From Saccharofermentans sp. (lineage in GTDB: Bacteria > Bacillota > Clostridia > Saccharofermentanales > Saccharofermentanaceae): a stretch of DNA of 64,000 nucleotides. The stretch covers positions 1 through 64,000 of the forward strand of contig JAIKVV010000052.1 of NCBI GenBank assembly GCA_024685385.1, given 5' to 3'. The position numbers and the translations under genes are program-made. A model generated the notes under the pieces. That model ran no database searches. It was not told where the DNA came from and was given only the letters and a program-made list of their open reading frames with translations. The first letter of the stretch is position 1. Every line of letters starts with the position of its first letter. Positions 15,030 through 54,369 of this stretch are shown one piece after another.

Positions 15030-18000
15030 ATGGCACATCTTACACCGGCACAAAAGAGCATATCGGATCTTGCGGAATTCTATAAAGACAGCGGGATAGA
15101 TACGCTCTGCGGCGCCGTCCTCTTCGATGAAAAACTCGATAAGGATCTTGTGACAAAGGCAGTAAGACATCTTCTTTCCAAGCACGAAAATTTCAATCTC
15201 CGCTTCACGCGTGAAGACGGCAGGATCGTTCAGAATGTGGTAGTGTCTGAAGATATTCAGGTCCCGCACAAGTCCTTCGACAGCATTGAAGAACTCCGTG
15301 AATACTGCAATAAAGATGCCCGTATTCCCTTCGGCTGCGACGGATCTGTCATGTACCGCATAATGACATTCGATCTTCCTTCAAGATCAGGCATAATGCT
15401 GAGCGCAAGCCACCTCATAGCCGATGCCTGGACCTACAGCCTGATCGTAAAGTATTTCTACGACAGCTATAACGCGCTCAAGAACGGTCTGCCGCTCGAT
15501 ATGTCCGCAGGCAGATACAGCGACTATATCTTAAAGTCAGATGAATATCTTGCTTCGGATTCATATCTTAAGGACAAGGAATTCTGGGAAGCTGAATATT
15601 CGGGCGGCATAAGCCCTTCTTCCCTCGGCAGGACCATTAATGAGAGCGGCATTGAATCAGCAAGATACATAACCGGCATCTCAGAGGAACTCTCGCAGGC
15701 AGCGGTAAGATTTGCAGTCGAAAACAAAAGTACCATCGCTGTTCTTTTCGAGACTGCGATATTGATATATCTCGACAGGATAAACGGCGAGGAAGGTCCC
15801 GTCACGATCGGCGTTCCGATATCCGGAAGAGGAAATGCGGAAGAAAAGAAAACAGCCGGCATGATCATCTCCACGATCCCTTTGACTGCTGCGGTCGAAG
15901 GCAGCATGAGCGTCATTTCTTTATGCCGGAAGGTAAGTTCCAAACACCGCGAGATCTTCCGCCACAGAAGACTTCCCTACGAAGACATAATCCGCGCGGC
16001 AAGACAGAATTCCGCGGGTCTCATGAGGCTCTATAACGTCATCGTGAGCTGCCAGAATTCAAGGACCGACGTGCCTTCCGTCACAGAGTGGTTTTCGGGC
16101 GGGCATTCGGAAGTGCCTCTTGCGATCCATATCGACGACCGCGACAGCAATGGCAATTACAAGATAACCATCGATCATCAGACCGGGATCTATAGCCCCG
16201 AAGAAGCAGCTCTCACCGCGGAGAGGATCAAGCACATAATCAGGCAGATGGTATCCGATAAGGACCTTATGGTAAAAGACATATCGATCCTGCCTCCTTC
16301 GGAAAAGGAGCTGATCCTGGATGGATTCAATCAGACCGCAGCAGATTACCGCAAGGATTCATGCGTGCAGGAGATGTTTTCCGAGAAAGTCATCTCTAAT
16401 CCCGACGGCATTGCGATAAGTTTTGCAGGCAAAGATCATACATTCGCCAACATCGATATGATGTCTGATACTCTTGCTTCTTCACTTATCGACAAAGGAG
16501 CAGGCCCCGGCAATATTGTTCCGATAATCGCATCAAGGAGTCATCTCGTGATAATCTCCATGCTCGCTGTTCTTAAGACCGGTGCAGCTTACATGCCCGT
16601 ATCCCCCGACTATCCGGAGTCCAGGATAAGCTACATGACTGATGCCGTAACGACATCCTGCGTGCTTACATCCGGATACGACTATGAAGGTGATAATGTC
16701 ATTGATCTTGATACTTTCGACTTCGATAAAAAAAGCGAAAAGGTTCTCTTCAGAAACTCCCCCGCTGACCTTTGTTATGTGGTCTTCACTTCAGGTTCCA
16801 CAGGCAAGCCCAAGGCGGTCGGCATCACGCATAAGAACGTTCTTAACTACTGCGCCTGCAATCAGTTCAATGTCGCAGGCGGAATAATAAAAGGATCTGA
16901 CAGGAAGATACTGTCAGTTACAAATATCGTTTTCGATATCTTCGTAACGGAAAGCATCCTAGCTCTCCTTAACGGCATTCAGATCGTAATGGCATCAGAC
17001 GATGATGTCTTCTCCGGCAAAGCCCTAGCATCGCTCATAAGATCTTCCGGCGCAAACATCATCCAGACGACGCCAACCAAGATGAAAAGCTATCTGCTCG
17101 ATAAGGAATTTGCTTCATGTCTTAAGTCGATCGGCACCGTGATCCTGGGCGGCGAAGAATTCCCCGAATCTCTTGCCGGGATAATCGCCTCAAAGACCGG
17201 CGCATCCATATATAACATATACGGTCCTGCCGAGACCACCGTATGGTCTTCTTATTCTTCTGTCGGCAAGGGCGACATCACGATAGGAAAACCCGTTGCA
17301 AACACTTCGATCTATATATTGGACGGATCTTCTGCCCCCTGCCCCGTCGGCATCACGGGCGGGATCTTCATATCAGGCGACGGCGTCGGCCCGGGCTATA
17401 TCAACAACCCGGAACTTAGTTCAGAGCGCTTCGTTCCCGATCCTTGGCACGAAGGTCAGATCATGTATGAGACCGGCGATCTCGGCTACTTCCTCCCTGA
17501 CGGAAGGATCAGGTTCTGCGGGCGCCGTGACGGTCAGATCAAACTCCGCGGGCTTAGGATCGAATTGGGCGAGATCGAGCATGCCATGACCGACATCACG
17601 GGCATCGATCTTGCTGCAGCCGTCTTAAGAAAAGACGATTCAGGCAATCCCTATCTCATCGGATTTTATACTTCCTCCATCCCGGTCTTGGAGCAGGACA
17701 TCCGCACGATCCTCCTTGGAAAACTCCCTTCTTACATGGTTCCCAACAGGATAATCCCGATCGAAAAGATGCCTCTCACCGCGAGCGGCAAGATCGAAAG
17801 GAAGAGCCTGCCGGAAGTTACTGTCATCACTGATTCCGCCAATGAATATGTTGCCCCCGGAAACGATACGGAGAAGGTCCTGTGCGAACTGTTTGCGAAG
17901 GTCTTGAAGCGCAACAGGACAGGCTGCGAAGACGACTTTTTCGAATCGGGCGGCGACAGTTTTGCAGCGATGGAACTGGTCGCTCTGGCATCCGAAAAAG

Positions 18001-18743
18001 GTCTTGAGTTCGGCGTCAGATCGATCTACGAATGCCGCAGCGTAAGAAAGCTTGCGGCAAGCATTGGATCAGTTCCTGCAGCCGAGGAAGCACCATCCTT
18101 AGATCACTCGGCCTTCCCCCTCGAAAGGACCCCGCGGGACCTCCGCTTCTTCCGCCGCTTCGCGTCTTTCTCCCGCAGACATTACAGGCTTAATGTCAAG
18201 TTTGAATCTGACGTAGACTTTAACGGGCGCTTCATCATCTGCCCCGATCACGAGACCATGTTAGACCCCCTCTGGGTCTGGGCCGCCCTTGAAGATAAGA
18301 TCGACATCAACGACTGCGCCGCCATCGGTGCCGCAGAGTTCCTGGATAAGAAACTTTCATCATCGATCTTCAGGCTGATCGGCGGCATTCCCGTCGACAG
18401 GACCGGCGACTTCCTCCCTGCTCTTACCCGCGCTGAAGAAGTGATCTTGAAAGAAAAGAAATACCTCCTGATCCACCCCGAAGGCACCCGCTCCAGAACA
18501 GGTGAATTGAGCGAGTTCAAGATAGGCGCAGGCATTATCGCAGCCAACACGGGAATCCCCGTGATCCCGGTCTCCTTGCACGGCGCAGGCGGGATCTTTC
18601 CGGTCGGTACCAAGAGGCCAAAGCTTTTCGCGCCTAAAGATCATCCCCTCACGATCCGCTTCGGCAGCCCTGTTGTTCCCGAAGGCAAGTCACCGGAAGA
18701 AATAATGGCAGAAGTCAGAGAGCAGATCGTGTCCCTGCGATAA
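15030..18743 (+). CDS. Single-module NRPS (C-A-PCP) fused to a PlsC-type acyltransferase
   Basis: 1237 aa. Condensation domain at residues about 1-420, with 'SHLIADAW' near 127-134 in place of HHxxxDG: the second His and the Asp are kept, the first His is Ser. Adenylation domain about 440-930: 'FTSGSTGKPKAVG', 'NIYGPAETTVW', 'YETGDLGYFLPDGR', 'LTASGKIERK'. Carrier protein about 945-1010, with 'SGGDSFAAMEL' holding the pantetheine Ser. The C-terminal 1050-1237 is a PlsC/LPLAT domain, with 'DHETMLD' (HxxxxD) and 'HPEGTRSRTG'. By hand alignment to GrsA the ten-residue specificity code reads D-I-T-Q-I-G-I-V-W-K, close to the Gly code. No thioesterase is present. I infer synthesis or transfer of an acylated amino acid, possibly glycine, to a lipid. 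Confidence 0.9.
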   Translation: MAHLTPAQKSISDLAEFYKDSGIDTLCGAVLFDEKLDKDLVTKAVRHLLSKHENFNLRFTREDGRIVQNVVVSEDIQVPHKSFDSIEELREYCNKDARIPFGCDGSVMYRIMTFDLPSRSGIMLSASHLIADAWTYSLIVKYFYDSYNALKNGLPLDMSAGRYSDYILKSDEYLASDSYLKDKEFWEAEYSGGISPSSLGRTINESGIESARYITGISEELSQAAVRFAVENKSTIAVLFETAILIYLDRINGEEGPVTIGVPISGRGNAEEKKTAGMIISTIPLTAAVEGSMSVISLCRKVSSKHREIFRHRRLPYEDIIRAARQNSAGLMRLYNVIVSCQNSRTDVPSVTEWFSGGHSEVPLAIHIDDRDSNGNYKITIDHQTGIYSPEEAALTAERIKHIIRQMVSDKDLMVKDISILPPSEKELILDGFNQTAADYRKDSCVQEMFSEKVISNPDGIAISFAGKDHTFANIDMMSDTLASSLIDKGAGPGNIVPIIASRSHLVIISMLAVLKTGAAYMPVSPDYPESRISYMTDAVTTSCVLTSGYDYEGDNVIDLDTFDFDKKSEKVLFRNSPADLCYVVFTSGSTGKPKAVGITHKNVLNYCACNQFNVAGGIIKGSDRKILSVTNIVFDIFVTESILALLNGIQIVMASDDDVFSGKALASLIRSSGANIIQTTPTKMKSYLLDKEFASCLKSIGTVILGGEEFPESLAGIIASKTGASIYNIYGPAETTVWSSYSSVGKGDITIGKPVANTSIYILDGSSAPCPVGITGGIFISGDGVGPGYINNPELSSERFVPDPWHEGQIMYETGDLGYFLPDGRIRFCGRRDGQIKLRGLRIELGEIEHAMTDITGIDLAAAVLRKDDSGNPYLIGFYTSSIPVLEQDIRTILLGKLPSYMVPNRIIPIEKMPLTASGKIERKSLPEVTVITDSANEYVAPGNDTEKVLCELFAKVLKRNRTGCEDDFFESGGDSFAAMELVALASEKGLEFGVRSIYECRSVRKLAASIGSVPAAEEAPSLDHSAFPLERTPRDLRFFRRFASFSRRHYRLNVKFESDVDFNGRFIICPDHETMLDPLWVWAALEDKIDINDCAAIGAAEFLDKKLSSSIFRLIGGIPVDRTGDFLPALTRAEEVILKEKKYLLIHPEGTRSRTGELSEFKIGAGIIAANTGIPVIPVSLHGAGGIFPVGTKRPKLFAPKDHPLTIRFGSPVVPEGKSPEEIMAEVREQIVSLR

Positions 18744-18988: not shown

Positions 18989-19064
18989 CGAGGTGTAGCG
19001 CAGTTGGTAGCGTACGTGCTTTGGGAGCATGGGGTCGCGGGTTCGAATCCTGTCACCTCGACCA
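18989..19064 (+). tRNA. tRNA-Pro (anticodon TGG)
   Basis: 76 nt including the encoded CCA. Acceptor arms CGAGGTG/CACCTCG. Anticodon stem CGTGC/GCATG with loop TTTGGGA gives anticodon TGG. The T arm GCGGGTTCGAATCCTGT is normal. The gene is the integration target of the prophage; its 3' 25 bp are duplicated at the right prophage end and the gene stays intact. Confidence 0.93.
19040..19064 (+). other. attL core within tRNA-Pro
   Basis: 25 bp of the tRNA 3' end (T arm through CCA) are identical to 54452-54476. The flanking bases differ on both sides. Confidence 0.9.
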
Positions 19065-19297: not shown

Positions 19298-20083
19298 TCA
19301 TTTTAGATATTGGTTGAAGCAGAATCCCTGATAACAGGTATTCCCGTCTGTATACTGAACACAGTACCAAGATCCAATACGGGATCCCAGTCCCGCTACC
19401 GTCTTTCCCTTTTTAATGGTCTTCAGGACGTTATACTTTGTCCCGGGACCATCTCTTAAGTTCAGATTATCCTTATCAGTTACAACAGTATATTTCTTGT
19501 CGATACCTGGGTCTTTCGATGCCTTCGAAAGCATAGCGGCTTTGATAGTCTTAACCGCCTGAGTCGGTGTTGAAGGGGCTGGAGCTGCTGTCTGCTTCTC
19601 TTCAGTAAAGAAGGGTGATTGTGCCCAATATGGCCACGCCTTAGCATTGAACTTTGTCTTGACCACACCGTATGCATGTCCTTTCGCCTCGATCACATAA
19701 CCATCAACATATACACCAACATGTGTCTTCTTGGAATCAGAGCCCTTGAAGACAAGCCTGCCGTTCATCTTGTCAAAGGATGCAATCTTACCCTTCTTTG
19801 TGGCCTTGTTATAGAGTCCGTTAGCCCCCAGATCCTGTGATGTGTTGTACTTCGGCACAGATGTAGGAGTATCTGACCACAAAGCCCCGTTATGGAGCCC
19901 CACGCAGTCATATACTCGTTGGCCATACTGTGAAGAGAAGTCTTTAGCCGTGTAATACTTCGGGTACTGTTTCTTCTTTTCATCATAGAGCTTCTTAGAA
20001 GAAGTCTGACCAAATGTTCCAAACCAGTACGGTTTTCCTACCTGGGCCTTGGCGTATTCAACCAGATATGCATTTGATTTCAT
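19298..20083 (-). CDS. Endolysin: NlpC/P60-like peptidase with SH3 domain
   Basis: 261 aa. Residues about 1-155 form an NlpC/P60-like cysteine peptidase: Cys in 'RVYDCVGLHNGALW' and His in 'KKTHVGVYVDG'. A Thr/Pro/Ala linker leads to a C-terminal bacterial SH3 domain ('YTVVTDKDNLNLRDGPGTKYNVLKTI') that should bind the cell wall. It is the last gene of the late operon, after the holin-like genes, with GGGAG before the ATG. No signal peptide is present, consistent with holin-dependent release. It should cleave peptidoglycan stem peptides. Confidence 0.88.
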   Translation of the reverse strand: MKSNAYLVEYAKAQVGKPYWFGTFGQTSSKKLYDEKKKQYPKYYTAKDFSSQYGQRVYDCVGLHNGALWSDTPTSVPKYNTSQDLGANGLYNKATKKGKIASFDKMNGRLVFKGSDSKKTHVGVYVDGYVIEAKGHAYGVVKTKFNAKAWPYWAQSPFFTEEKQTAAPAPSTPTQAVKTIKAAMLSKASKDPGIDKKYTVVTDKDNLNLRDGPGTKYNVLKTIKKGKTVAGLGSRIGSWYCVQYTDGNTCYQGFCFNQYLK

Positions 20084-32211: not shown

Positions 32212-32634
32212 TTACTCACATACAAGCGGTGACAAGTCGTACTCCTTACGGAGTGTTGCCGTACCATCAGTAGCCACGATAATGAGCTTCTGGGTATTCT
32301 TGTCATTGATGTATGCTGCAAAGTTCTTATCCTCATCCTCGATGATCTCAACAAGGCCGCTGTCATCATCAATGGGAGTGGTTCCACCCGGACCACCGTA
32401 TGTAGGTCTAAGCCCTACCTTAACGGAAGTCATATCCTCGGTGATTCCCAGAACTTTCATGGCGAGGAAGTTACCTTCACCCCAGTAGTTAACCAGAGCG
32501 CTCGGAGTATCATAATGCTTGAGTGTTCCTGTTACGGCATTCCCTACAACAGAAACACCGCTCTGAAGATCACTCACTGCCGAGTCGTAGATTGTAGCCC
32601 CACTGTCCTCGGGCTCAACCGAGGGGCTTACGAG
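32212..32634 (-). CDS. Capsid C-terminal extension domain, expressed by -1 frameshift
   Basis: The ORF track gives 32212-32577 starting with GTG, which has no ribosome binding site. The frame is open upstream through the end of the capsid gene ('PLVSPSVEPEDSGATIYDSAV...'). A slippery A-AAC-CCC heptamer and a stem-loop at the capsid stop would join it to the capsid, adding 140 residues. The domain is beta-rich (YWGEGNFLAMKVLGI, TDGTATLRKEYDLS), as expected for a head-decorating domain. Listeria phage PSA is a known case of a frameshift-extended capsid (by +1). Confidence 0.7.
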   Translation of the reverse strand, partial: LVSPSVEPEDSGATIYDSAVSDLQSGVSVVGNAVTGTLKHYDTPSALVNYWGEGNFLAMKVLGITEDMTSVKVGLRPTYGGPGGTTPIDDDSGLVEIIEDEDKNFAAYINDKNTQKLIIVATDGTATLRKEYDLSPLVCE

Positions 32635-32640
32635 GGGTTT
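32596..32640 (-). promoter_or_regulatory. Programmed -1 ribosomal frameshift signal
   Basis: On the minus strand the heptamer A AAC CCC (32634-32640) is in the capsid frame, followed by TCG and stop TAA. Five bases after the heptamer begins a structure of AGCCC/GGGCT enclosing CTCGG-TTGAGC-CCGAG (32596-32628). The heptamer follows the X XXY YYZ rule. Confidence 0.72.
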
Positions 32641-33491
32641 GATGCCACCACATGAGCATAGATACCTGCTACCTTGTTCTCATAGACATCGTTAAGGCCA
32701 TAGATCCTGTAACCGAACTTCCATGCGTCAGCATCCTGATTCTGTTCAGGTGTGATGACCTTCGGTGCCAGGTGCTTGACCGTCTGAAGAACTGCAGACT
32801 TGGCAACGATAAGGAAGTTAAGGTTCTTACCATCTGTGTGCCTGGAGTATCCGCCTGCGCCGGATGTAGCAAGAGCAACCTTGCTGTAGAAACGACTCTG
32901 CGGAACCTTGGTGATCTTGGCGAAGGATGCAAGACAAGCCTTGGACTTAGTTGTATCCATATCCTCGATATCCTTAAGACCTGCAGGTGTAATGAAGAGG
33001 TATCTCTCTTCTAAAGGAACCTCTGCGTCATCCATCTCTGCCATTGCTGCGGATACAGCTGCATACCAGCCACCTGCAGAAATGTTTGCGGAAGTACCGC
33101 CGATATTAGCTGTGCCTGCGTACTGTGCGAAACGGACAGCGTCAACCTCGGGAACAACCTTTGTTCTGATGAACTCACCTGCGAGCTTACCGAAAGCGAT
33201 ACCTGCAGTCTCCTCGTTGTCCATAGCGTCAACGTTGAACATACGACCACGCTCGTAGTTGAACTGCTTGGTCTCGTGTGTGAGTGTAACATCGCCCTGG
33301 GTATAACCGCTGTTACGGCTGTAAGCTGCAAGACCCTGCATCTCAAGCTTGGGTACGATGATCTCGTTAGCGTTAGCACCTGCCTGGAAGAGTTCAGAAT
33401 CGCCATCAAGTACAGACGTAAGAGAAGCGTTCTTATAAACTTCATCAAGCAAAGGTACATACTTCTTAAAAAGTGCAATAGAATTTGCCAT
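32628..33491 (-). CDS. Major capsid protein (HK97 fold)
   Basis: 287 aa in the short form, with GGAGGAATAATAAC before the ATG. Features of the family: 'ELFQAGANANEIIVPKLEMQGLAAYSRNSGYTQGDVTLTHETKQF', 'KVVPEVDAVRFAQYAGTAN', and the C-terminal 'YRIYGLNDVYENKVAGIYAHVV'. It follows a scaffold gene. The gene ends at a -1 slippery site, so a fraction of ribosomes should make a 426-aa form. Self-assembles into the head. Confidence 0.92.
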   Translation of the reverse strand: MANSIALFKKYVPLLDEVYKNASLTSVLDGDSELFQAGANANEIIVPKLEMQGLAAYSRNSGYTQGDVTLTHETKQFNYERGRMFNVDAMDNEETAGIAFGKLAGEFIRTKVVPEVDAVRFAQYAGTANIGGTSANISAGGWYAAVSAAMAEMDDAEVPLEERYLFITPAGLKDIEDMDTTKSKACLASFAKITKVPQSRFYSKVALATSGAGGYSRHTDGKNLNFLIVAKSAVLQTVKHLAPKVITPEQNQDADAWKFGYRIYGLNDVYENKVAGIYAHVVASNPS

Positions 33492-33512: not shown

Positions 33513-34187
33513 TTATTTCTTGTTGGGGGAAAGTCCGAAAGCGCGTCGTATCGCGTCATCGTTATCACCTCCCTTGTCCTTATTCCCGTCAGCTCCGATC
33601 TTGAATCCCGAAGTCTCCTTCGTATCCTTCAGTTCCGGAACATCCTTAAGGACCTGTTCAACGGCAGCCTTGATAGCCGCCTCATCCGGATTACCGTCAT
33701 CATCGATGGTGATCTTGGTAAGGTCTGCCATCTTGACCACATAATCCAGCTTGTTGCTCTTGACACCAAGGCTCGAAGCCATGATCTGTGCATTTGCCTT
33801 AATCATTACTGCATTCGCTTTTGCGATTGCTTCCTGAGCGGTCTTTTCCGCAGCATCTGCACGTTCAGCCTGTGCTTTGGCATCATTCTTTGAAGCCTCT
33901 GCCTTCTCTGCCTTTGTCTTTTTGTACTCGGCTATAGCTGCATTAGCTTCTTCCTCAGTAAGACCCTGCTGCTGGAAGAAAGACTTCAAAGCTGACTTCT
34001 CAGCTCTGCCCGTTCTCTCTGTCACAATCTTATCCAGGTCTTCCTGCGTATACTGCTTTGTACCGGTAGCAGCTCCGTCGTTACCGCCGTTACCCCCGGC
34101 GTTAGGGTTTGTGCCGTTCGTATTGTTCTCGGCACCCGAATTCTCGGCGCCGGATCTTGCGGACTGCTGTTCATTCATCTCTGACAT
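33513..34187 (-). CDS. Phage scaffold protein (DUF4355/gp20-like)
   Basis: 224 aa from the ATG at 34185-34187 with GGAGGTACATCT; the track start lies 21 codons upstream. The N-terminus is Gly/Asn/Ala-rich and disordered. A long coiled coil (EKAEASKNDAKAQAERADAAEKTAQEAIAKANAVM) follows, with a C-terminal capsid-binding-like segment (DDAIRRAFGLSPNKK). Composition and position before the capsid gene define it as scaffold, needed for head assembly and absent from virions. Confidence 0.85.
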   Translation of the reverse strand: MSEMNEQQSARSGAENSGAENNTNGTNPNAGGNGGNDGAATGTKQYTQEDLDKIVTERTGRAEKSALKSFFQQQGLTEEEANAAIAEYKKTKAEKAEASKNDAKAQAERADAAEKTAQEAIAKANAVMIKANAQIMASSLGVKSNKLDYVVKMADLTKITIDDDGNPDEAAIKAAVEQVLKDVPELKDTKETSGFKIGADGNKDKGGDNDDAIRRAFGLSPNKK

Positions 34188-34251
34188 AGATGTACCTCCG
34201 TTTATTGCCCGTCGGCTATATTCCATCCTGTAAGCCCGGATGTTGGACATG

Positions 34252-34372: not shown

Positions 34373-34558
34373 ATGAAATCTAATGTAAAGATCGAGTTCC
34401 CAGACAACTTTGATCAGCTGATCACAAATGCGGCTATCGAAGCTGTCAAGACTCAGGGCGTGGAAATTGAATGTCCAAAGTGTCAAACTAAGTTCAAAAC
34501 AAAAGGCGAATCATTTCAATGCCCACATTGCAATCAATCATTCCACATAAACTTTTAG
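34373..34558 (+). CDS. 61-aa zinc-ribbon protein, antisense to the late operon
   Basis: AAAGGAG nine bases before the ATG, with an extended -10 (TGCTATATT, 34318-34326) upstream. The C-terminal half holds two CxxC knuckles ('IECPKCQTKF', 'FQCPHCNQSFHINF'), so a zinc ribbon is likely. The N-terminus is a helix (FDQLITNAAIEAVKTQ). It is the only plus-strand gene between the endolysin and the repressor, and its 3' end overlaps the convergent 34538-34732 gene by 21 bp. It could be expressed in the lysogen. Function unknown. Confidence 0.65.
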   Translation: MKSNVKIEFPDNFDQLITNAAIEAVKTQGVEIECPKCQTKFKTKGESFQCPHCNQSFHINF

Positions 34559-34732
34559 CTTTACATCCTTGGAAGCCAGTTCGTTTACCAATGAGCTGGC
34601 TTCATTAAGTATCTCAACCAGTTTATTTGCTTTGTCAATTGTTTCATCAAGTTCTGATTTATCAACTTTGACAGTAACAGGAATTGACTTTATCTGGTCT
34701 CCGCCTACACATACTATTATGTTTTTTTCCAT
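34538..34732 (-). CDS. Small phage protein of unknown function
   Basis: 64 aa from the ATG at 34730-34732, with TTGGAGGTAAAC upstream. Begins MEKNIIVCVGGDQIKSIPVTVKVDKSELDETIDKANKLV: a beta-hairpin start, then a helix, then a beta end (KDVKLKVYVE). No family recognised. A terminator stands just upstream, so it may depend on read-through or its own promoter. Confidence 0.6.
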   Translation of the reverse strand: MEKNIIVCVGGDQIKSIPVTVKVDKSELDETIDKANKLVEILNEASSLVNELASKDVKLKVYVE

Positions 34733-34745
34733 GTTTACCTCCAAT

Positions 34746-34785
34746 GAAAAAGAGGTCTGGTACCATTTTGATACCGAACCTCTTT
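34746..34785 (-). terminator. Terminator downstream of the MuF cassette
   Basis: AAAGAGGT-tc-GGTATC...GGTACC-ag-ACCTCTTT, followed on the minus strand by a T run. It closes the terminase-portal-MuF-small ORF block. Confidence 0.65.
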
Positions 34786-34850
34786 GGTTGATTATGTTAA
34801 GTTGTCTGGTCAGTTACTGGTTGAACGATGCACCGTTTTCGGTGGGGTGG

Positions 34851-34991
34851 TCAGGAACTGTGTTCCTTTTCTTGTAAACAAGCAATATACGCATCTTGCT
34901 CCTCAGGAGACATGTTAGAAAACTGATCTATCATTCCTCCCGGTTCATACATAGAATCATCAATAATTAAGTCTTTACTATTCCCAATCAT
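34851..34991 (-). CDS. 46-aa acidic ORF following the MuF-JAB gene
   Basis: ATG at 34989-34991 with AAGGAGATGATTATAT upstream; stop TGA at 34851-34853. Below the ORF-track cutoff. Acidic sequence MIGNSKDLIIDDSMYEPGGM, ending ACLQEKEHSS. It starts 24 bp after the MuF stop and ends before a terminator, sharing the AT-rich composition of the MuF C-terminal region. It may belong to the same module, for example as an immunity or folding partner. That is inference from context only. Confidence 0.55.
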   Translation of the reverse strand: MIGNSKDLIIDDSMYEPGGMIDQFSNMSPEEQDAYIACLQEKEHSS

Positions 34992-35014
34992 ATATAATCA
35001 TCTCCTTGTAATGA

Positions 35015-36697
35015 TTATATCAGTTTTGTCACCTTAAAGCCATAATCTTCGCTTAACTTTTTTAATGCGTATTCCGCAGCTGCAACTTTATCTTGATTTT
35101 GACGAAAATAATCTTTGTAGTGATCTAAAAACTCAGAATCAGGTATTTCCCTTGTTGGCCTTGTATAATGATAAACACTCCCATTATGTCCTGCCACCAT
35201 CCCAGAAGCATTTTTCGTAGACAATAACTCATTCAAATCTGTTAAACTTGGTGGTGAACTACTGGGATGATTATGAATTATTATAATCGGAGACCCAGAT
35301 TCATCAGCTTTTTTCAATTTACCAATGAATTTTACATCTCTTCCAACTCCAAATGGTACATTTTGGTTCGTTACACGCCCGATTTCTTCTCCAACTTTTT
35401 CTCCGCTTGAAAAAACTGCATACATCTCTTCAGTATTCTTCCCATCACGGTTTGTCAATGTCCAAGTTATTCTCGTTTTTATAGCTTCTGATGCTTTTTC
35501 CGAGTCCACAACACTCCTTATTGCTTTATCATACTCCTTACTTTGAATCTTTGGCCAATTTACACCATAATCCCCTTCTGTAGCCTTTCTTGAAGACTCA
35601 GCAACCATTGGTTTTCCATTTCCTGTATACCCCGGCGCTAGCCTCTTCGGATTCTTTCTCAAATACGGGTGCTCGCTCAAGTACTCGTCATGCTTCTGTG
35701 TCCATTCCTTAACCCTGGCATCGTATTTCTGTCGATCTGCCGGATCCACAGCTCCGTCACGGAGTCTCTTGTACTTTCTTATCTCACGTTCCTGTCTCCT
35801 TTGCTCCTGTTCCGCCTTATAGTGTTCCTTGTTTTCAACATCGTTGGGAAGTTCTGCTATCTCCGTGATTCCTTCAATGTACATGAACAGCTGATGCCTG
35901 CAGTTCGGATGAAGGAAGCCAGCTGCCTTTGCTTCAGATACGAGCTTATGCTTCCCGTCAGGCTTACCTTCAGAGTACACGTCATCGATCATGACCTTCC
36001 CCTGCCACTCCTGGCAGATCGGACAGGTCATGCCGATCACATTGGATACGACCAGGTATTCACCCAGTTCGTTCCTGACATCGCCGTTTGCCTGCCTGGT
36101 GACTTCGGAAGAACTCGTCCTCAACGCCATCTCCGCATAAGATGCGATGTTTACACGATTACCGTTCCTGTACTCAACACAGTTAAGACCTGCTGCCAGG
36201 AAGTCTCTGGAAGCTATGTCCACCGCCTGAGGTATCGTATAGCTTCCTGACTGTGCGTAGATATCAGCCTTCCTTAGGAAGTCTGTATATCCGCTGTTCA
36301 TCCTGTTGATCGCTGCATATCGTTTCGTATCGATATTCTGTACTGCCTCATTGATGATGATATCCAGCTTACTGCTGTTCACTCCGAAGAAACCCGGACG
36401 GATCCTCTTTTTTCCGAACAATGCAGCAAAACCTCTGGCATCATCAACACTGCCTTTGTAGGCTTCCTTCAGGAACTCGATAATAGCTGCTTTCGCTCTA
36501 TCGAAGTAACTGTTGGTCAGTCCAGCAACATTCTTACGATATTCTCTTAATCCGGTTATCTGTTCGGCCTGCCACTGGGTCCACTTAAAGCCTTCCATCT
36601 TCTCCCAGTCTTCGTGCCTCTTCATGTTGCGAATTGCCATTGCAAAAAGGTCATCCTCCATAGCCTGGAAGATGTCGCCAATATCTTCCCAGGTCAT
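35015..36697 (-). CDS. MuF/minor capsid protein 2 with C-terminal JAB/MPN-like domain
   Basis: 560 aa, AGGAGGTACCA before the ATG. Residues about 1-290 match phage minor capsid protein 2/MuF head proteins, with the Cys/His signature 'GMTCPICQEWQGKV' and 'HPNCRHQL'. A charged linker (EQRRQEREIRKYKRLRDG) follows. Residues about 390-560 carry 'IIIIHNHPSSSPPSLTDL', resembling the JAMM/RadC metal motif HxHP...SxxD, then 'GMVAGHNGSVYHYTRP'. The C-terminal third is visibly more AT-rich. MuF proteins are packaged in heads and may be injected; variable C-terminal enzyme domains are known in Firmicutes prophages. Confidence 0.8.
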   Translation of the reverse strand: MTWEDIGDIFQAMEDDLFAMAIRNMKRHEDWEKMEGFKWTQWQAEQITGLREYRKNVAGLTNSYFDRAKAAIIEFLKEAYKGSVDDARGFAALFGKKRIRPGFFGVNSSKLDIIINEAVQNIDTKRYAAINRMNSGYTDFLRKADIYAQSGSYTIPQAVDIASRDFLAAGLNCVEYRNGNRVNIASYAEMALRTSSSEVTRQANGDVRNELGEYLVVSNVIGMTCPICQEWQGKVMIDDVYSEGKPDGKHKLVSEAKAAGFLHPNCRHQLFMYIEGITEIAELPNDVENKEHYKAEQEQRRQEREIRKYKRLRDGAVDPADRQKYDARVKEWTQKHDEYLSEHPYLRKNPKRLAPGYTGNGKPMVAESSRKATEGDYGVNWPKIQSKEYDKAIRSVVDSEKASEAIKTRITWTLTNRDGKNTEEMYAVFSSGEKVGEEIGRVTNQNVPFGVGRDVKFIGKLKKADESGSPIIIIHNHPSSSPPSLTDLNELLSTKNASGMVAGHNGSVYHYTRPTREIPDSEFLDHYKDYFRQNQDKVAAAEYALKKLSEDYGFKVTKLI

Positions 36698-36715: not shown

Positions 36716-38200
36716 TTACACTGCGTATTCTTCCGGGGCAGGCGGTTCGATACCACCGTCTGCTATCCCCTTCTCTGCCTTTATCCTCTCGACCTCCGCT
36801 TTCTTCCACTCTTCGTCCTTCGTATCACCCCAGAGTTCCTCGACCTGTGTCTCCGTGCTCATCAGGTTGGAAGATGCGGCCTTACCCAGAGTCTCGACCT
36901 GAGCCTCGAACGACGGGTTCGCATACTCGCCGAACGTCACGGCAACATCCGTGTCCTCGATCCCCATGTCATAGAGGGTCGCATAGACAGCCAGGACATT
37001 CTTTACGAGCTCCGGTAAGACATCGTTAAGTGTATCGATTATGGTATCTCTCGTGTAGAGAGTAGCCTTCTCTTTCTCGCGTTGCGCTTCAGCATTGTCG
37101 AGTTTCTTCACATCGATACCCAACGTGCTGGGACTGATGATCCCCTGTAAGCACATATCCAGGGTATTGATATACGTGGCCAGAAGTCCGTCGTAATCGA
37201 TATGCGGAGCTTCAACCGTGATCGTATCCTTAGAGTTCTCTGACATGGAGCTCTTAAGTGCTATAAATTGATTGTCGAAAGCATTCGGCTCCATAGCCTT
37301 TCCGGTGTTCGGATCTCTCGGGATCATCGTCTCCGGGATATATGTCTTGACTCTTCCGATCCTCAATGCATCCTGCCACTGTGATATGGCTTCATCAAAC
37401 GCATCAAAGGCGTCCGTCTTCCTGTCGAAGATGGAACGGCCACGACCGGGGAACTTGGCTGACTTGTAAAACATCATCGGGAGAGCCATTACAAAATCAT
37501 CTTCCCAGGTGATCGTCTTCAGGCCCTTAAGATCCGGAACACTATCGAGGCTGACCTCGTTCCCGTTTTCATCGAAGAGGTGATACTCGATCATGCCCTT
37601 GGTGTAGTGTTCCTCTAGGTAATAGACCTTACGTGTCGCTTCTACATAGTAACGGGTGTTGAAGATAATCTTGTTTATCCTTCCGCGTTTCTTCTCGAAC
37701 TTAACACGGTCTGCCGGATAGAATTCTATAATGGGATAGTCCGAGATATCCTTATCGAATGATATCTTCCAAGCCCCGTCCCCCTGAACAAGAACATCAC
37801 CGATCGCCTGTGATACCGTATCGACAAAGTTATTGTCTTCACTGATCTCCTGCCAGGTATCGTTCCAGACATCCGGATCCGTTACTTCAATAGCATTAAG
37901 ATCTGTAATGACTATCGATGTCAGCATATCCACCATAAGCCCCGGAAGGCCGCTGTGGATCTTCCTCAGCCTGTTACCTCTTGACGGTACAGCTGCCCAG
38001 AACTTAGCTCTGACCACATCATCATGCACCGTAGTTAAGCTCTTATAGAACTGATCAAGTTCTGAAGCGCTGCCACGATACCAGAGATTGTACTCAAAGC
38101 ACGCATCTTGATGTGACATATCAGCATCGATCGTTATACGCTGATTCTCTGCAGGCTTGATGTCAAGCCACCGCTTGATCATCTCTTTTACTGCGCCCAT
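36716..38200 (-). CDS. Phage portal protein
   Basis: 494 aa, AAGGAGGAGAGC before the ATG. SPP1 gp6-like features: 'LPGLMVDMLTSIVITD', 'SQAIGDVLVQGDGAWKISFDKD', 'FPGRGRSIFDRKTDAFDAFDEAISQWQDALR' and 'GISPSTLGIDVKKLDNAEAQREKEK'. It forms the dodecameric DNA channel and lies between terminase and MuF genes as expected. Confidence 0.92.
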   Translation of the reverse strand: MGAVKEMIKRWLDIKPAENQRITIDADMSHQDACFEYNLWYRGSASELDQFYKSLTTVHDDVVRAKFWAAVPSRGNRLRKIHSGLPGLMVDMLTSIVITDLNAIEVTDPDVWNDTWQEISEDNNFVDTVSQAIGDVLVQGDGAWKISFDKDISDYPIIEFYPADRVKFEKKRGRINKIIFNTRYYVEATRKVYYLEEHYTKGMIEYHLFDENGNEVSLDSVPDLKGLKTITWEDDFVMALPMMFYKSAKFPGRGRSIFDRKTDAFDAFDEAISQWQDALRIGRVKTYIPETMIPRDPNTGKAMEPNAFDNQFIALKSSMSENSKDTITVEAPHIDYDGLLATYINTLDMCLQGIISPSTLGIDVKKLDNAEAQREKEKATLYTRDTIIDTLNDVLPELVKNVLAVYATLYDMGIEDTDVAVTFGEYANPSFEAQVETLGKAASSNLMSTETQVEELWGDTKDEEWKKAEVERIKAEKGIADGGIEPPAPEEYAV

Positions 38201-38210
38201 GCTCTCCTCC

Positions 38211-39560
38211 TTACGCCGCTAGCAGAAGCTGCTTAAACGGCTGTATTGAATATTCGTCCGAGTCGAGGCAGTCAACAGGATAGCTCCCGTCATCCACTCT
38301 GACCCAATCCTTCTCTAAGTATTCCTTCTCATCCCAGCACGCCTGTTCGTATGCATCGAGCCACTGCCGCATATGGGATGCGATCTTCTTTCTGCCCTGG
38401 TTGATCAGGATCTCCTGAAGGTGGATCCTGTCAACTATGCCTTCCTTCTTATAGGACGGCACTATGATCATGCTCTGAAGGCCGACATCATCCAGAGCCT
38501 TTCTCAAGGCCTGTCTGAATAGCTTGTCTGCCGATTCGCAGAACACGGTACATGTCTTAAGCTTCGGGTAAACCTTCGTCCACTTCAGGACGAATTGTGC
38601 GATCGCAGCTGCGTACTGAGCATGGTCCATTCCGTGCTCAATCCCCTGCTTATGGTAATACCCGTCTATCGCTACGACCTGACTATATCCGGATGTGAAT
38701 CCGTTCAACGTGGCTACCGTCGCATCCGTACCACCGACATCGACTCCTACCGAGAAGTCAATAAACGATATCTTACGGTCATAGGTACCTTCAGGAAGCT
38801 TTTCGACGATATCCTTCAGGTCTATCTCCACCGCCTTACTAAAGCCCGTGTAGATGATTCCTGAAGCCGTCGTGCGCTTTCCGAGAATATCAGCCTTGAA
38901 CCACTGGCTCTTCTGATCGTACGTCTTGATGATCTCTCTTATTCTGTCATCAGAGATCGAGAGGTTATCGGCTATCGTGAAGTGCTGGTAGTTATAACCG
39001 TAATTAGGATCCTTGCTTTGATTCTCCTTGTGTACGGATTCTATCTCCTGATAGAACCAATGTCTGGGCGGCTTCGGATTCAGGTCCATGAAGATCCTTC
39101 GTCTGCCTGCTGCCAGCGTACGATCGAAGCATTCCTGTATGAATGTCTTGTGACACTCGTTAGCCTCTGTTATATACACGCATCCGAGCGAGAATCCTTT
39201 GATACGAGCTGCATCATTTATCTTCTGACCGCCCGCGATCAGTACGATCTTCTCGCCCTTGGCCGTCATTATGAACAGAGCATCTAACCCTTCATACTTT
39301 CCTTCCCGGCATCTTCCGCGGAAGTAATGCTTCAGTCCGAACCCGTTCGAGTCGATGATGTTCATCCTCGCCGTACCATGCGTAACTCCGGCAGCTAAGT
39401 GGATCTTGTCTGTCGTGACCTCAATATTCATCGCGAATGCAATGATATTGATCACGTTCTTTCCGGCACGCTTACCGCCTTCGGCCACGTTGAGCCAGCA
39501 GGATCCGCTCCGTCTGATGTATGCGGCCTGCTTCTTTGTAAACGGTGCATACTTACTCAT
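38211..39560 (-). CDS. terL: Terminase large subunit
   Basis: 449 aa from the ATG at 39558-39560 preceded by GGAGAAGGTG; the track start is 15 codons upstream, inside terS. ATPase motifs: unusual Walker A 'VAEGGKRAGKNV', then 'IKGFSLGCVYITEANE' (Walker B-like with catalytic Glu). Nuclease domain with 'FSVGVDVGGTDATV' and a C-terminal acidic 'DCLDSDEY'. It packages DNA into the prohead. The start overlaps the small-subunit stop by eight bases. Confidence 0.92.
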   Translation of the reverse strand: MSKYAPFTKKQAAYIRRSGSCWLNVAEGGKRAGKNVINIIAFAMNIEVTTDKIHLAAGVTHGTARMNIIDSNGFGLKHYFRGRCREGKYEGLDALFIMTAKGEKIVLIAGGQKINDAARIKGFSLGCVYITEANECHKTFIQECFDRTLAAGRRRIFMDLNPKPPRHWFYQEIESVHKENQSKDPNYGYNYQHFTIADNLSISDDRIREIIKTYDQKSQWFKADILGKRTTASGIIYTGFSKAVEIDLKDIVEKLPEGTYDRKISFIDFSVGVDVGGTDATVATLNGFTSGYSQVVAIDGYYHKQGIEHGMDHAQYAAAIAQFVLKWTKVYPKLKTCTVFCESADKLFRQALRKALDDVGLQSMIIVPSYKKEGIVDRIHLQEILINQGRKKIASHMRQWLDAYEQACWDEKEYLEKDWVRVDDGSYPVDCLDSDEYSIQPFKQLLLAA

Positions 39561-40068
39561 GCGTGTCACCTTCTCCCAGGAACGCACCAAGATCTCTGTC
39601 ATCATCTGCGGAGAACACCTTGCAAGTCAGATCATCTATCTTGCTGAGTTCTGAAGAGTTCTCCGTAAGGACCTCGCGCTTGTCACGCCACTGATCCGGT
39701 TTCCTGTTCTTGAGCCAGAAGATCTGAGCTGTCGTATCCGGAGCTACATCCTTCTCGACTTCTTTTACAGTGACCATTTCATACTGACCTGTAGTACGGT
39801 TCCACTGCTTTTCCCGTATGACCTCTTTCGCCTTATAACCGGTTGCCTTACGGAAGAGTGCCTGCTCGACCTCTCGATCGGCTACTTCCTTGTTCTTTTT
39901 TATGGCCTCGCAAATCTCGCAATAAGAATGTTGCCATCGATAAAGAGTAGCAACATTTATTCCCATGTTCTTAGCAATCTCTTCATCGGTCAGGCCGTCT
40001 CTGGCCCATCCTTCGATCAGAAGTAATCCTTCAGGCGTAAGCCAGCGTTGATACTTGCCTTTCGCCAT
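39553..40068 (-). CDS. terS: Terminase small subunit
   Basis: 171 aa with AGAGGAGGTAACCT before the ATG. The N-terminal HTH ('LTDEEIAKNMGINVATLYRWQHSYCEICEAIKKNKEV') should bind the packaging site. 'QALFRKATGYKAKEV' and 'APDTTAQIFWLKNRKPDQWRDKREV' are typical of phage small terminases. Translationally coupled to the large subunit. Confidence 0.9.
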   Translation of the reverse strand: MAKGKYQRWLTPEGLLLIEGWARDGLTDEEIAKNMGINVATLYRWQHSYCEICEAIKKNKEVADREVEQALFRKATGYKAKEVIREKQWNRTTGQYEMVTVKEVEKDVAPDTTAQIFWLKNRKPDQWRDKREVLTENSSELSKIDDLTCKVFSADDDRDLGAFLGEGDTHE

Positions 40069-51541: not shown

Positions 51542-51577
51542 ATATACTTGATTTATTACATAAGAAAGGAATGTCAT

Positions 51578-52222
51578 ATGAACAAATTCAAAGATATGTT
51601 GAAATACTTCCGAGAAAAGGAAGAACTATCTCAGGCTGAACTTGCCAGTAAGATTGGAGTAAAACCCTCTACTATTGGTATGTACGAAACCGGCGAACGA
51701 CAGCCGAATTTCGAGACTGAAGAAAAAATAGCAGATTATTTCAACGTTAGTCTTGATGTTTTAAGGGGGAAAAGGGAGTACTCAGCTCAACCCATTATTC
51801 TTTTGGAAACAATCGGTAGCAAGGCCTCTTCTGTAAAGATCCCTGTTCTTGGCGATGTTGCAGCAGGCATTCCTCTCAATGCTATCGAAAATATAATCGA
51901 TTATGAGGAAATTCCTGAAGAGCTCGCTTCCCAGGGAGAGTTTTTCGGTCTGAGAATAAAGGGGGATTCAATGGAGCCCAGGATCTGCGATGGTGATGTG
52001 GTAATCGTCAGGAAGCAAGAAGATGCTGATTCCGGTGACACTATCATCGCCTGTGTAAATGGTGACTATGCTACCTGCAAAAGATTGGTTAAGCAGTCAG
52101 ACTGCATCATGCTGGTATCCTTGAATAGCAAATATGCACCCATGATATATACCAAAGATGATGTTATCAACATGCCGGTAACGATCATCGGCAAGGTGGT
52201 TGAACTCAGGGGGAAGTTATGA
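51578..52222 (+). CDS. CI-like repressor with S24 autoprotease domain
   Basis: 214 aa from the ATG at 51578 with AAAGGAATGTCAT; the track start would precede the -10 box. N-terminal XRE HTH ('LSQAELASKIGVKPSTIGMYETGERQPN'). The C-terminal LexA/S24 domain has cleavage region 'LGDVAAGIP', Ser in 'KGDSMEPRI' and Lys in 'ATCKRL'. RecA-stimulated self-cleavage should induce the prophage after DNA damage. Confidence 0.92.
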   Translation: MNKFKDMLKYFREKEELSQAELASKIGVKPSTIGMYETGERQPNFETEEKIADYFNVSLDVLRGKREYSAQPIILLETIGSKASSVKIPVLGDVAAGIPLNAIENIIDYEEIPEELASQGEFFGLRIKGDSMEPRICDGDVVIVRKQEDADSGDTIIACVNGDYATCKRLVKQSDCIMLVSLNSKYAPMIYTKDDVINMPVTIIGKVVELRGKL

Positions 52223-52371: not shown

Positions 52372-52393
52372 ATTACTATTTGTGGAGGTCGAT

Positions 52394-53080
52394 ATGATTA
52401 GGACAGCTATTTTAGTAGATGGTGGTTTTTACAGGAAGAGAGCCAAAGTATTAAAGGGTGAGCTTTCAGGAAAAGATCGCGCAAAAGAATTATTTCAATA
52501 TTGCATGTCGCATATAAACGGCAAGAATTACGATGGTAGCAAAAATGAAGAAAAACAAACACTTTATCGCATTTTCTATTATGATTGTATGCCATTGAAT
52601 AAGCGTTATGTCTTTCATCCTCTAAGCAAACAAAATGTAGATCTTGGTAAATCTGATTCATTTGACTGGACGGAATCAATGTTTAATGAACTTAGGAAAA
52701 CTCGAAAAGTTGCATTAAGGTTGGGAGAATTATCTACTTATTCTAATTACAATCTTAAACCTTCAGTAACAAAAAACTTGTTTTTGGGGAAGATCAAACT
52801 TGAAGATATTAAAGTGAACGATTTTGAATTAAATATCAAGCAGAAGGGCGTTGATATGAAGATTGGTATCGATATTGCTTCTCTAGCATATAAGAAGCAG
52901 GTTGATCGAATAATATTGATTGCAGGCGATAGCGATTTTGTTCCTGCAGCAAAAACGGCTCGAAGAGAAGGCATTGATTTCATATTGGATCCGATGTGGA
53001 CTAAAATAAACGACAATTTATTTGAACACATTGATGGATTAATGAGTGTTTGGCCCGATCCTTCGAAAACTACAAAATAA
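52394..53080 (+). CDS. NYN-domain (LabA/DUF88-like) putative RNase, prophage cargo
   Basis: 228 aa from the ATG at 52394 with GGAGGTCGAT. NYN signature: 'TAILVDGGFYRKR' (first Asp), 'QKGVDMKIGIDIA' and 'IILIAGDSDFVPAAKTARREGIDFIL', i.e. the acidic residues of the PIN-like fold. The gene is AT-rich compared with neighbours, has its own promoter and lies between repressor and integrase, the usual site for lysogenic cargo. NYN proteins are RNA-directed nucleases, and some act in defence or toxin systems; that role here is inferred. Confidence 0.82.
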   Translation: MIRTAILVDGGFYRKRAKVLKGELSGKDRAKELFQYCMSHINGKNYDGSKNEEKQTLYRIFYYDCMPLNKRYVFHPLSKQNVDLGKSDSFDWTESMFNELRKTRKVALRLGELSTYSNYNLKPSVTKNLFLGKIKLEDIKVNDFELNIKQKGVDMKIGIDIASLAYKKQVDRIILIAGDSDFVPAAKTARREGIDFILDPMWTKINDNLFEHIDGLMSVWPDPSKTTK

Positions 53081-53130: not shown

Positions 53131-53172
53131 GTACAGTGAACGAACGTACTGGCAATTCCACGTTCATTGTAC
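53131..53172. repeat. Inverted repeat upstream of the integrase gene
   Basis: GTACAGTGAACG (53131-53142) and CGTTCATTGTAC (53161-53172) pair at 11 of 12 positions, ending 40 bp before the integrase start. Likely a regulatory hairpin or binding site. Confidence 0.55.
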
Positions 53173-53211
53173 CACATTCCTACATATTTTAATAACGAGG
53201 AGGAATGTACA

Positions 53212-54369
53212 ATGTATCAACATCACGATATCCCACAACCCAAGTGGGATGCAAAAAACAAGAAATGGATCCTGTCCATTATGATCAAAGGCAGAAGAAA
53301 GCAATTCACGTCCAGCCTGAAGGGTATGCCGGGCAAACGGATCTGCCGTGAGAAAGCAGCAGAGTGGATTGAATCAGGTTGTGAAAACACGAACAATTCT
53401 ACTGTCAGCAAAGCTTTCGATATCTATATTAAGGAATACCGAGCACGATTTGGGGATAATGAGCAGCTGGTAAATATCGAGAGTGTGGGAAGAGTATTTA
53501 TTCTACCTGCTATCGGCAATTACAAATGTTCCAGGATAACTCTGGATGATTGGCAGGATATCATCAATAACGCTAAGCCTACTGTATTTGTTCGTAAGGA
53601 CGGTACTACATATCAGAGGACTGAGAAACTCTCCAAGAAATATTTGAACAATATAAGGGGTGTTATCATGACCTTCTGCAAATGGGCAGTTCCGAGGCAT
53701 TACTTCAAAGACTATCCCAATGGTTTATACATTCCATCAGGAGCTCCTACGAAGGGAAAGGAAATACTCCAACTGTCAGATATAGAGAAACTGTTTAAGA
53801 ATCCTACAGGCCTGTGGTACGAGCGAGCCCTGATGATCGAGGTCCTTACCGGATGGCGTCCGGGGGAAGTACTGGGGCTCCAGAAAAGCGATTACGACCC
53901 GGAGACCGGACTCGTCGTGATAAACAGATCCGTTAATGCCAGAGGAATGATCACTCCCGGCAAGAACAAGAACGCACATCGAGCAATGGAGTTAACTCCG
54001 GAAGTTAAGAGGATCCTCGATGAACAAATCGCAGAAACGGAATATCTTGACTCCGAATGGATATTCTGCAATCAGATCGGATGTAAGGCAAGACAGGAAG
54101 CCGTCCGAAGATGCTGGAGAGCTATAGTAAAACGCAAAGGACTCCCGGAGAATACCTCTCCCTACTCCCTGCGTCACACTTTCTACACGCATACCGAAGC
54201 ATATCTACCTGACAGAGTGATTAAATCGGTCTTCGGACATAGCGAGAAAACTGATGGACACTCAATATATGGTTCACATGTTATCTCCGAGGAAGCACAC
54301 GAGGCAGCACAGAAGCTTTCTATCACACCGATATATCAAACTGCTTTCAACAAGAAAAAAGCGGAGTAA
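53212..54369 (+). CDS. int: Tyrosine recombinase (phage integrase)
   Basis: 385 aa from the ATG at 53212 with GGAGGAATGTACA; the track start is 15 codons upstream. N-terminal arm-binding domain ('PKWDAKNKKWILSIMIKGRRKQFTSSLKG'), SAM-like core-binding domain about 60-185, catalytic domain with Arg in 'LTGWRPGEVLGLQ', 'YSLRHTFYTHTEA' (Arg-His) and 'FGHSEKTDGHSIYGSH' (His, Tyr nucleophile). Stands 80 bp from attR. No excisionase gene was recognised. Confidence 0.93.
   Translation: MYQHHDIPQPKWDAKNKKWILSIMIKGRRKQFTSSLKGMPGKRICREKAAEWIESGCENTNNSTVSKAFDIYIKEYRARFGDNEQLVNIESVGRVFILPAIGNYKCSRITLDDWQDIINNAKPTVFVRKDGTTYQRTEKLSKKYLNNIRGVIMTFCKWAVPRHYFKDYPNGLYIPSGAPTKGKEILQLSDIEKLFKNPTGLWYERALMIEVLTGWRPGEVLGLQKSDYDPETGLVVINRSVNARGMITPGKNKNAHRAMELTPEVKRILDEQIAETEYLDSEWIFCNQIGCKARQEAVRRCWRAIVKRKGLPENTSPYSLRHTFYTHTEAYLPDRVIKSVFGHSEKTDGHSIYGSHVISEEAHEAAQKLSITPIYQTAFNKKKAE

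What the first reader, a model, noticed from the sequence alone, without database searches (positions are those of the whole stretch)
34851..36697. MuF head protein with JAB/MPN-like C-terminus plus a 46-aa companion ORF
The C-terminal third has a JAMM/RadC-like HNHP...SxxD motif and is more AT-rich than the MuF part. A small ORF with a good ribosome binding site follows before a terminator. This resembles modular MuF effector cassettes that could be packaged and injected. The small ORF could be a partner or immunity protein.
Basis: partly seen in the sequence, partly recalled or inferred. Interest (0 to 1): 0.7.

Follow-up and report, generated by a model that had tools for sequence, protein, structure and literature searches.

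The report
Phage-head JAB effector with tiny partner
A prophage head protein carries a swappable zinc-enzyme-like (JAB) tail that travels through gut Clostridia with a conserved ~50-residue partner, as a toxin travels with its antidote; neither the JAB tail nor the partner is in the protein-family libraries searched.

Summary
The 560-aa ORF is a MuF2 minor capsid protein (PF06152) whose last ~190 residues fold as a JAB/MPN domain (AlphaFold pLDDT 96). A 46-aa ORF with a good RBS follows, then a terminator. Three same-genus prophages have 76-79% identical MuF parts but unrelated C-termini: two HExxH types and a CdiA_C toxin. DNA homology stops at the domain junction and resumes just after the small ORF, so JAB plus 46-aa ORF is one swapped cassette. 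About 120 related JABs, mostly in Clostridia, are fused to MuF1, MuF2, VG15 or portal domains, or stand alone, usually away from phage genes. Nearly all are followed directly by a 40-60-aa companion with the pattern DDRxxIPxxIKxMTxEE; the window's ORF belongs to it. JAB and companion distances correlate (r=0.79), JAB and MuF distances do not (r=0.00). Broken JABs keep a companion; no intact JAB with readable downstream DNA lacks a small ORF. Best reading: a MuF polymorphic toxin/effector with a cognate immunity protein, of a JAB clade absent from the libraries and papers searched. Toxicity, delivery and substrate are inferred.

The parts
35015..36697 (-). MuF2 minor capsid protein with C-terminal JAB effector domain, 560 aa
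   Evidence: ORF; PF06152 155 bits
35610..36697 (-). MuF backbone, residues 1 to ~362, conserved in same-genus prophages (76-79% aa identity over residues 1-340)
   Evidence: blastn homology ends at 35609-35626
35018..35587 (-). JAB/JAMM domain, residues 371-560; predicted metal ligands E423, H475, H477, D487, with S484
   Evidence: AF2 pLDDT 96; Foldseek to RadC and JAMM1; motif retained in 120 of 127 sites selected without it
34832..35609 (-). swapped cassette: JAB coding region plus companion ORF; right edge at 34831 against L015, 34784 against L016 and L017
   Evidence: DNA homology breakpoints against three same-genus prophages
35002..35007 (-). ribosome-binding site AAGGAG, 10 nt before the ATG of the companion
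   Evidence: sequence
34851..34991 (-). 46-aa companion, member of the DDRxxIPxxIKxMTxEE family, putative immunity protein
   Evidence: hit by companion HMM built without it, adjacent to JAB; 56% identity over 34 aa to the companion of a broken JAB in G031
34746..34785 (-). intrinsic terminator; the block is retained in the three same-genus prophages
   Evidence: fold -19.9 kcal/mol, z -4.4; shared DNA 34730-34784
36716..38200 (-). portal protein
   Evidence: phrog_533 E=1.8e-85
38211..39605 (-). terminase large subunit
53167..54369 (+). phage integrase, marks a temperate prophage
   Evidence: PF00589 66 bits
51548..52222 (+). CI-type repressor (HTH_3 plus Peptidase_S24)

Best explanation
The 560-aa protein is a MuF polymorphic toxin or effector of a temperate phage. 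The MuF domain places it in the phage head (inferred from the family). The C-terminal JAB/JAMM domain is a metal-dependent hydrolase (supported by predicted fold and conserved ligand motif only) that is ejected into the recipient with the DNA (inferred). My first choice of activity is a zinc (iso)peptidase on a bacterial protein, about 55%; a nuclease or nucleotide hydrolase, as proposed for RadC and Tox-JAB, remains possible. The 46-aa ORF is the cognate immunity protein. It most likely binds the JAB active site, perhaps by its extended acidic DDRxxIP segment as a pseudo-substrate followed by a helix, and protects the lysogen while virions are made. Domain and companion move between phages and chromosomes as one cassette.
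For: Swap: three same-genus MuF genes 76-79% identical, C-termini unrelated, breakpoints at the domain junction and just after the small ORF; one replacement is a CdiA_C toxin above its Pfam cut-off. AT-rich cassette. Linkage: 119 of 140 JAB ORFs have an adjacent companion-HMM hit, most others a divergent small ORF. Scan of 391 genomes: strong JAB hits in 7, strong companion hits in 8, all 7 shared (Fisher p 3e-14). Co-travel: JAB-companion Mantel r 0.79 overall, 0.82 in fusions; JAB-MuF r 0.0007. Asymmetry: broken JAB with intact companion in G031 (L018), L203 twice, L077, L138 and L118, and an orphan companion in G397; no intact JAB with readable downstream DNA lacks a small ORF. Catalytic motif kept in 120 of 127 sites chosen without it. 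Small ORFs behind MuF toxins, and proven immunity for Bxa and Apk2, are precedent (PMC5576092, PMC11699363).
Against: No toxicity, protection, packaging or enzymatic data. Standalone JAB-companion pairs in chromosomes have no delivery domain, so the module may not be primarily a delivered toxin. The companion is very small for an immunity protein. Some JABs (Coriobacteria, several Streptococcus and Levilactobacillus phages) have other small ORFs that the HMM does not recognise. Selection by motif biases the family towards intact copies. The swap partner in G033 (L017) has no clear immunity ORF behind its CdiA_C domain.
Confidence: 0.74

Rival explanations
1. The injected JAB is not a toxin but a counter-defence or host-takeover enzyme, for example one that removes ubiquitin-like conjugates made by Bil/Bub or CBASS systems. 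The companion keeps it inactive in the producing cell.
For: Fold matches include ubiquitin-pathway JAMMs: PfJAMM1 with SAMP2, BubCD. The variable C-terminus fits an arms race. MuF and portal fusions are proposed as early effectors (PMC5512222).
Against: Orphan and tandem companions behind broken JABs suggest protection against the JAB itself. Standalone chromosomal pairs are not explained by a phage counter-defence role. No PADLOC family was hit.
Confidence: 0.2
2. The JAB-companion pair is primarily an autonomous toxin-antitoxin or defence module of Clostridia chromosomes that phages capture as a C-terminal cassette; the phage use is secondary.
For: 55-67 standalone JAB genes, only 8 of 67 with phage-like neighbours, no conserved neighbour, all with the metal motif and nearly all with the companion.
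Against: Standalone genes begin at the cassette junction of the fused forms (QRYGRNK block), as displaced orphan cassettes would. Gene order toxin then small ORF is that of polymorphic toxins.
Confidence: 0.3
3. The JAB is an ordinary capsid-maturation protease or structural head domain, and the small ORF a morphogenesis helper.
For: It lies in the head operon in frame with the minor capsid protein; some MuF proteins are annotated as capsid maturation proteases.
Against: Replaced by unrelated domains in close relatives; attached to portal proteins and free of phages elsewhere; JAB history independent of MuF history.
Confidence: 0.05

Closest known systems
MuF polymorphic toxins of temperate phages (Jamet 2017, PMC5576092; Zhang 2012, PMC3482391)
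   Same: N-terminal MuF domain in the DNA-packaging module of a prophage, variable C-terminal domain, small downstream ORF
   Different: JAB does not occur as a word in the text of the 2017 survey held and MuF is not listed as a carrier of Tox-JAB in 2012; here the JAB clade also rides portal proteins and stands alone
Tox-JAB-1 and Tox-JAB-2 (DUF4329) toxins (PMC3482391)
   Same: JAB fold, E, HxH, S, D motif, used as a toxin domain with an immunity gene
   Different: no Pfam hit to DUF4329; those have Imm65 or Imm-NTF2-2 and are on RHS/T6SS/T7SS-type carriers; here a ~50-aa companion family
RadC / JAMM proteins
   Same: closest solved folds, RadC 2qlc and PfJAMM1 5ld9; profile finds only RadC in PDB, E=0.011
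   Different: far below RadC family cut-offs; extra helices before and after the JAB core; one-residue shorter metal loop
Bxa and Apk2 MuF toxins with immunity proteins (PMC11699363)
   Same: MuF N-terminus, C-terminal enzyme, adjacent immunity genes that block it
   Different: ADP-ribosyltransferase and alarmone synthetase, not JAB; immunity proteins unrelated by description

Membership tests
MuF polymorphic toxin | MuF domain (PF04233, PF06152 or related) at the N-terminus | tested here: met
   PF06152 155 bits
MuF polymorphic toxin | C-terminal domain varies among close relatives with the same MuF | tested here: met
MuF polymorphic toxin | small ORF under 150 aa directly downstream | tested here: met
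   46 aa; family-wide
MuF polymorphic toxin | encoded in head/packaging module of a temperate phage | tested here: met
   terminase, portal, scaffold, major head protein; integrase and S24 repressor
MuF polymorphic toxin | C-terminal domain is toxic and the small ORF protects | not testable with these tools
   needs expression assay
JAB/MPN+ (JAMM) domain | JAB fold | tested here: met
   (Foldseek E 2.6e-3 at best, prob 0.87-1.00 for RadC and JAMM1)
JAB/MPN+ (JAMM) domain | E, HxHP, S/T, D metal-site motif | tested here: met
   HxHPx5SxxD, one residue shorter than usual
JAB/MPN+ (JAMM) domain | metal-dependent hydrolase activity | not testable with these tools
   needs assay
Tox-JAB-2 (DUF4329) | match to the family profile | tested here: not met
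   no hit for window or nine relatives
RadC | match to RadC profile above cut-off | tested here: not met
   NCBIfam 11.7 bits against 180; Pfam RadC only sub-threshold in two distant FSxxD-type relatives
known anti-phage defence family | PADLOC profile match | tested here: not met

The most novel reading that the evidence does not exclude
The ~190-aa JAB and its ~50-aa DDRxxIPxxIKxMTxEE companion are an undescribed autonomous toxin-antidote module, spread over chromosomes of gut Clostridia and captured by phages as a warhead on MuF or portal proteins. The companion is a miniature pseudo-substrate inhibitor of a JAMM-type hydrolase.
Probability: 0.38. Interest if true: 0.75.

Novelty: new variant of a known kind. 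Interest (0 to 1): 0.62.

Why it matters
MuF toxins are a known idea with few tested members (Apk2 and Bxa are the characterised ones in PMC11699363). A common JAB effector clade with a tiny conserved partner, found on several kinds of head protein and as free chromosomal pairs, gives a compact, testable toxin-immunity pair and a chance to settle whether bacterial toxin JABs cut proteins or nucleic acids. It also marks two protein families, JAB clade and companion, that Pfam, NCBIfam, PHROGs and PADLOC did not recognise.

Tried and rejected
The companion is not found in the phage records by tblastn. Promoter scan not above chance. Companion search hits with E above about 1e-4 look like ribosomal protein L29-type helices and long unrelated frames and were discarded. 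Most weak JAB hits of ~235 aa look like host RadC. A conserved neighbour of standalone JABs was looked for and not found. The invariance of the metal ligands in A9 is partly by construction (the search motif holds the E and a filter held HxHP), so the unbiased count is used instead.

Full report
Observation. The window's minus strand carries, in order, terminase large subunit (38211-39605), portal (36716-38200), the 560-aa ORF (35015-36697), the 46-aa ORF (34851-34991), a 68-aa ORF (34538-34744), scaffold (33513-34250) and major head protein (32628-33491). An integrase (53167-54369), an S24-type repressor (51548-52222) and an NlpC/P60-like lysin with SH3 domain (19298-20083) frame a temperate prophage. 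The 560-aa ORF matches PF06152 over residues 5-340 at 155 bits. Residues 371-560 match no Pfam or NCBIfam family above cut-off, but hold E423, H475-N-H477-P, S484 and D487.

Composition. GC falls from 0.486 (GC3 0.571) in residues 1-340 to 0.367 (GC3 0.258) in residues 371-560 and 0.362 in the small ORF. This fits recent acquisition of domain and small ORF together.

Fold. AlphaFold2 with the window domain and 81 relatives gives pLDDT 96, pTM 0.91. Foldseek finds RadC (2qlc), P. furiosus JAMM1 (5ld9, TM 0.59 by target) and bacterial BubCD; the E-values are weak (2.6e-3 to 1.6e-2) but the top list is JAB/MPN proteins. A sequence profile of the family finds only RadC in the PDB, E=0.011. In predicted viral structures the best matches are phage minor capsid proteins.

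Swap in close relatives. Among 115 genomes of the same family, four (the window's own included) carry this MuF. The other three (G081, G057, G033) are 76-79% identical over the MuF part, then differ completely: an HExxH (HEFQH) domain plus a 101-aa ORF, another HExxH (HELGH) domain plus a ~52-59-aa ORF, and a CdiA_C domain at 27.7 bits, cut-off 26.6. Blastn homology with the window stops at 35609-35626 and resumes at 34831 or 34784, in the terminator region. So the unit exchanged is C-terminal domain plus small ORF. In G033 (L017) no convincing immunity ORF is seen. Streptococcus phage Javan351 and Solobacterium phage SMO_1P also carry PF06152 proteins without a JAB; Javan351 has an HExxH-like C-terminus.

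Relatives of the JAB. Anaerostipes phages AC844P1-P3 carry the same JAB (47% identity); AC844P2 was read and has a 45-aa ORF behind it. Streptococcus phage MissF carries it on a different MuF with a 52-aa ORF. A DNA pattern on the glutamate side of the motif found 26 viral and 102 genome loci; with the earlier loci this gave 124 distinct JABs: 47 with a large N-terminal part, 55 standalone, mostly ~190-210 aa, 12 with short extensions, 10 cut by contig ends. Of 45 fused N-termini, 22 match PF04233, 17 PF06152, 2 a portal family, 2 VG15. Of 67 standalone or near-standalone loci only 8 have phage-like neighbours, and no neighbour family is widespread. Named hosts are mostly Lachnospiraceae, Oscillospiraceae and Ruminococcus, with some Olsenella and Levilactobacillus.

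Is the metal motif really conserved? The search motif contains the glutamate, so its invariance is by construction. Of 127 distinct sites chosen by that motif alone, 120 carry HxH[PS]x5[ST]xxD downstream. The rest are one contig end, two chance matches and four broken copies (L077, L118, L138, L203).

The companion. Nearly every JAB is followed, median gap 0 nt, by a 42-60-aa ORF (5th-95th percentile) with the pattern (Y)(F)xDDRxxIPxxIKxMTxEExxxEIxxLE. A profile built from 75 of them, without the window's ORF, hits next to 119 of 140 JAB ORFs (counts include repeat copies of some loci); the window's own ORF scores 13.5 bits and is 56% identical over 34 residues to the G031 companion. JABs without a hit mostly have divergent small ORFs (MissF, G261, Olsenella with an 83-aa ORF), or end at contig ends. 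In a scan of 391 genomes of the class, strong companion hits occur in 8 genomes and strong JAB hits in 7, all 7 shared, p = 3e-14; the model contains some of these sequences, so this shows co-occurrence and not blind discovery. Neither partner matches Pfam, NCBIfam, PHROGs or PADLOC convincingly.

Co-travel. Over 98 non-redundant pairs, JAB and companion distances correlate at r=0.79 (0 of 2000 permutations). In 33 fused genes, JAB-companion r=0.82, JAB-MuF r=0.0007, companion-MuF r=0.05. JABs 85% identical sit on N-termini with no detectable similarity (L083, L086). The companion therefore belongs to the JAB, not to the head.

Toxin-immunity asymmetry. Broken JABs keep a companion: G031 behind a dprA-like gene (HNHP part deleted), L203 (two tandem truncated copies), L077 (loop deletion), L138 (frameshift, two companions), L118 (frameshift, divergent companion); G397 has a companion with no recognisable JAB. 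No intact JAB with readable downstream DNA lacks a small ORF, though in Olsenella it is of another type. Cassette stacking is also seen: behind the portal-JAB and companion of L019 lies another HTHP-containing toxin-like ORF with a 94-aa partner, and the same cassette ends a MuF protein in L210.

Mechanism. Shown by sequence and prediction: MuF head domain, JAB fold, conserved metal motif, cassette swap, coupled companion. Inferred: presence in the head, ejection with DNA, hydrolysis of a host target, and inhibition by the companion. The pseudo-substrate idea rests only on the conserved extended acidic segment before a predicted helix.

Comparison. The architecture and logic are those of MuF polymorphic toxins (PMC5576092, PMC3482391), for which small downstream ORFs are the rule (89.4% of 191 MuF toxin genes) and for which Bxa and Apk2 have proven immunity proteins (PMC11699363). 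Tox-JAB-1 and -2 are described toxins on other carriers with other immunity proteins, with a nuclease role proposed (PMC3482391). I found no paper that joins JAB, MuF and this companion; the library held is open-access only. Verdict: a new variant of a known kind.

Noticed in passing
window 34373-34558 (+): A 61-aa zinc-ribbon gene (phrog_9188, unknown function) lies on the opposite strand inside the head operon, between the terminator and scaffold gene.
   Followed up: no
window 34538-34744 (-): A 68-aa ORF (phrog_19236) behind the terminator is identical in protein over its C-terminal 64 residues in the G081 prophage although the cassette beside it differs.
   Followed up: partly
window 52382-53080 (+): NYN-domain (PIN-like) protein between the repressor and the integrase, a possible lysogeny-expressed accessory gene.
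   Followed up: no
window 18989-19064 (+): tRNA-Pro(TGG) lies directly beside the lysin end of the prophage, a possible attachment site.
   Followed up: no
window 15030-18743 (+): 1237-aa protein with condensation, AMP-binding, carrier and acyltransferase domains in one chain, next to the prophage.
   Followed up: no
L019 4890-5631; L210: A second toxin-like cassette (SPIEQ...GHTHPG..., possibly another JAB-like domain) with a 94-aa partner, stacked behind a portal-JAB in L019 and fused to MuF in L210; no Pfam match.
   Followed up: partly
L203 minus strand, ~6680-7210 (reverse-complement coordinates): Two tandem truncated JABs each followed by an intact companion, like an immunity array.
   Followed up: yes
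L107, L115, L129, L155 (Olsenella and relatives): Coriobacterial JABs of this clade have a different, 83-aa companion that overlaps the JAB stop codon.
   Followed up: partly
L024-L027: A second JAB type (HNHPxxxxFSxxD) at MuF C-termini, closer to RadC, also followed by 51-60-aa ORFs.
   Followed up: no
L017 (G033) oriented 4124-4230: MuF with CdiA_C toxin domain but only a 27-aa ORF before the terminator, so no obvious immunity gene.
   Followed up: partly
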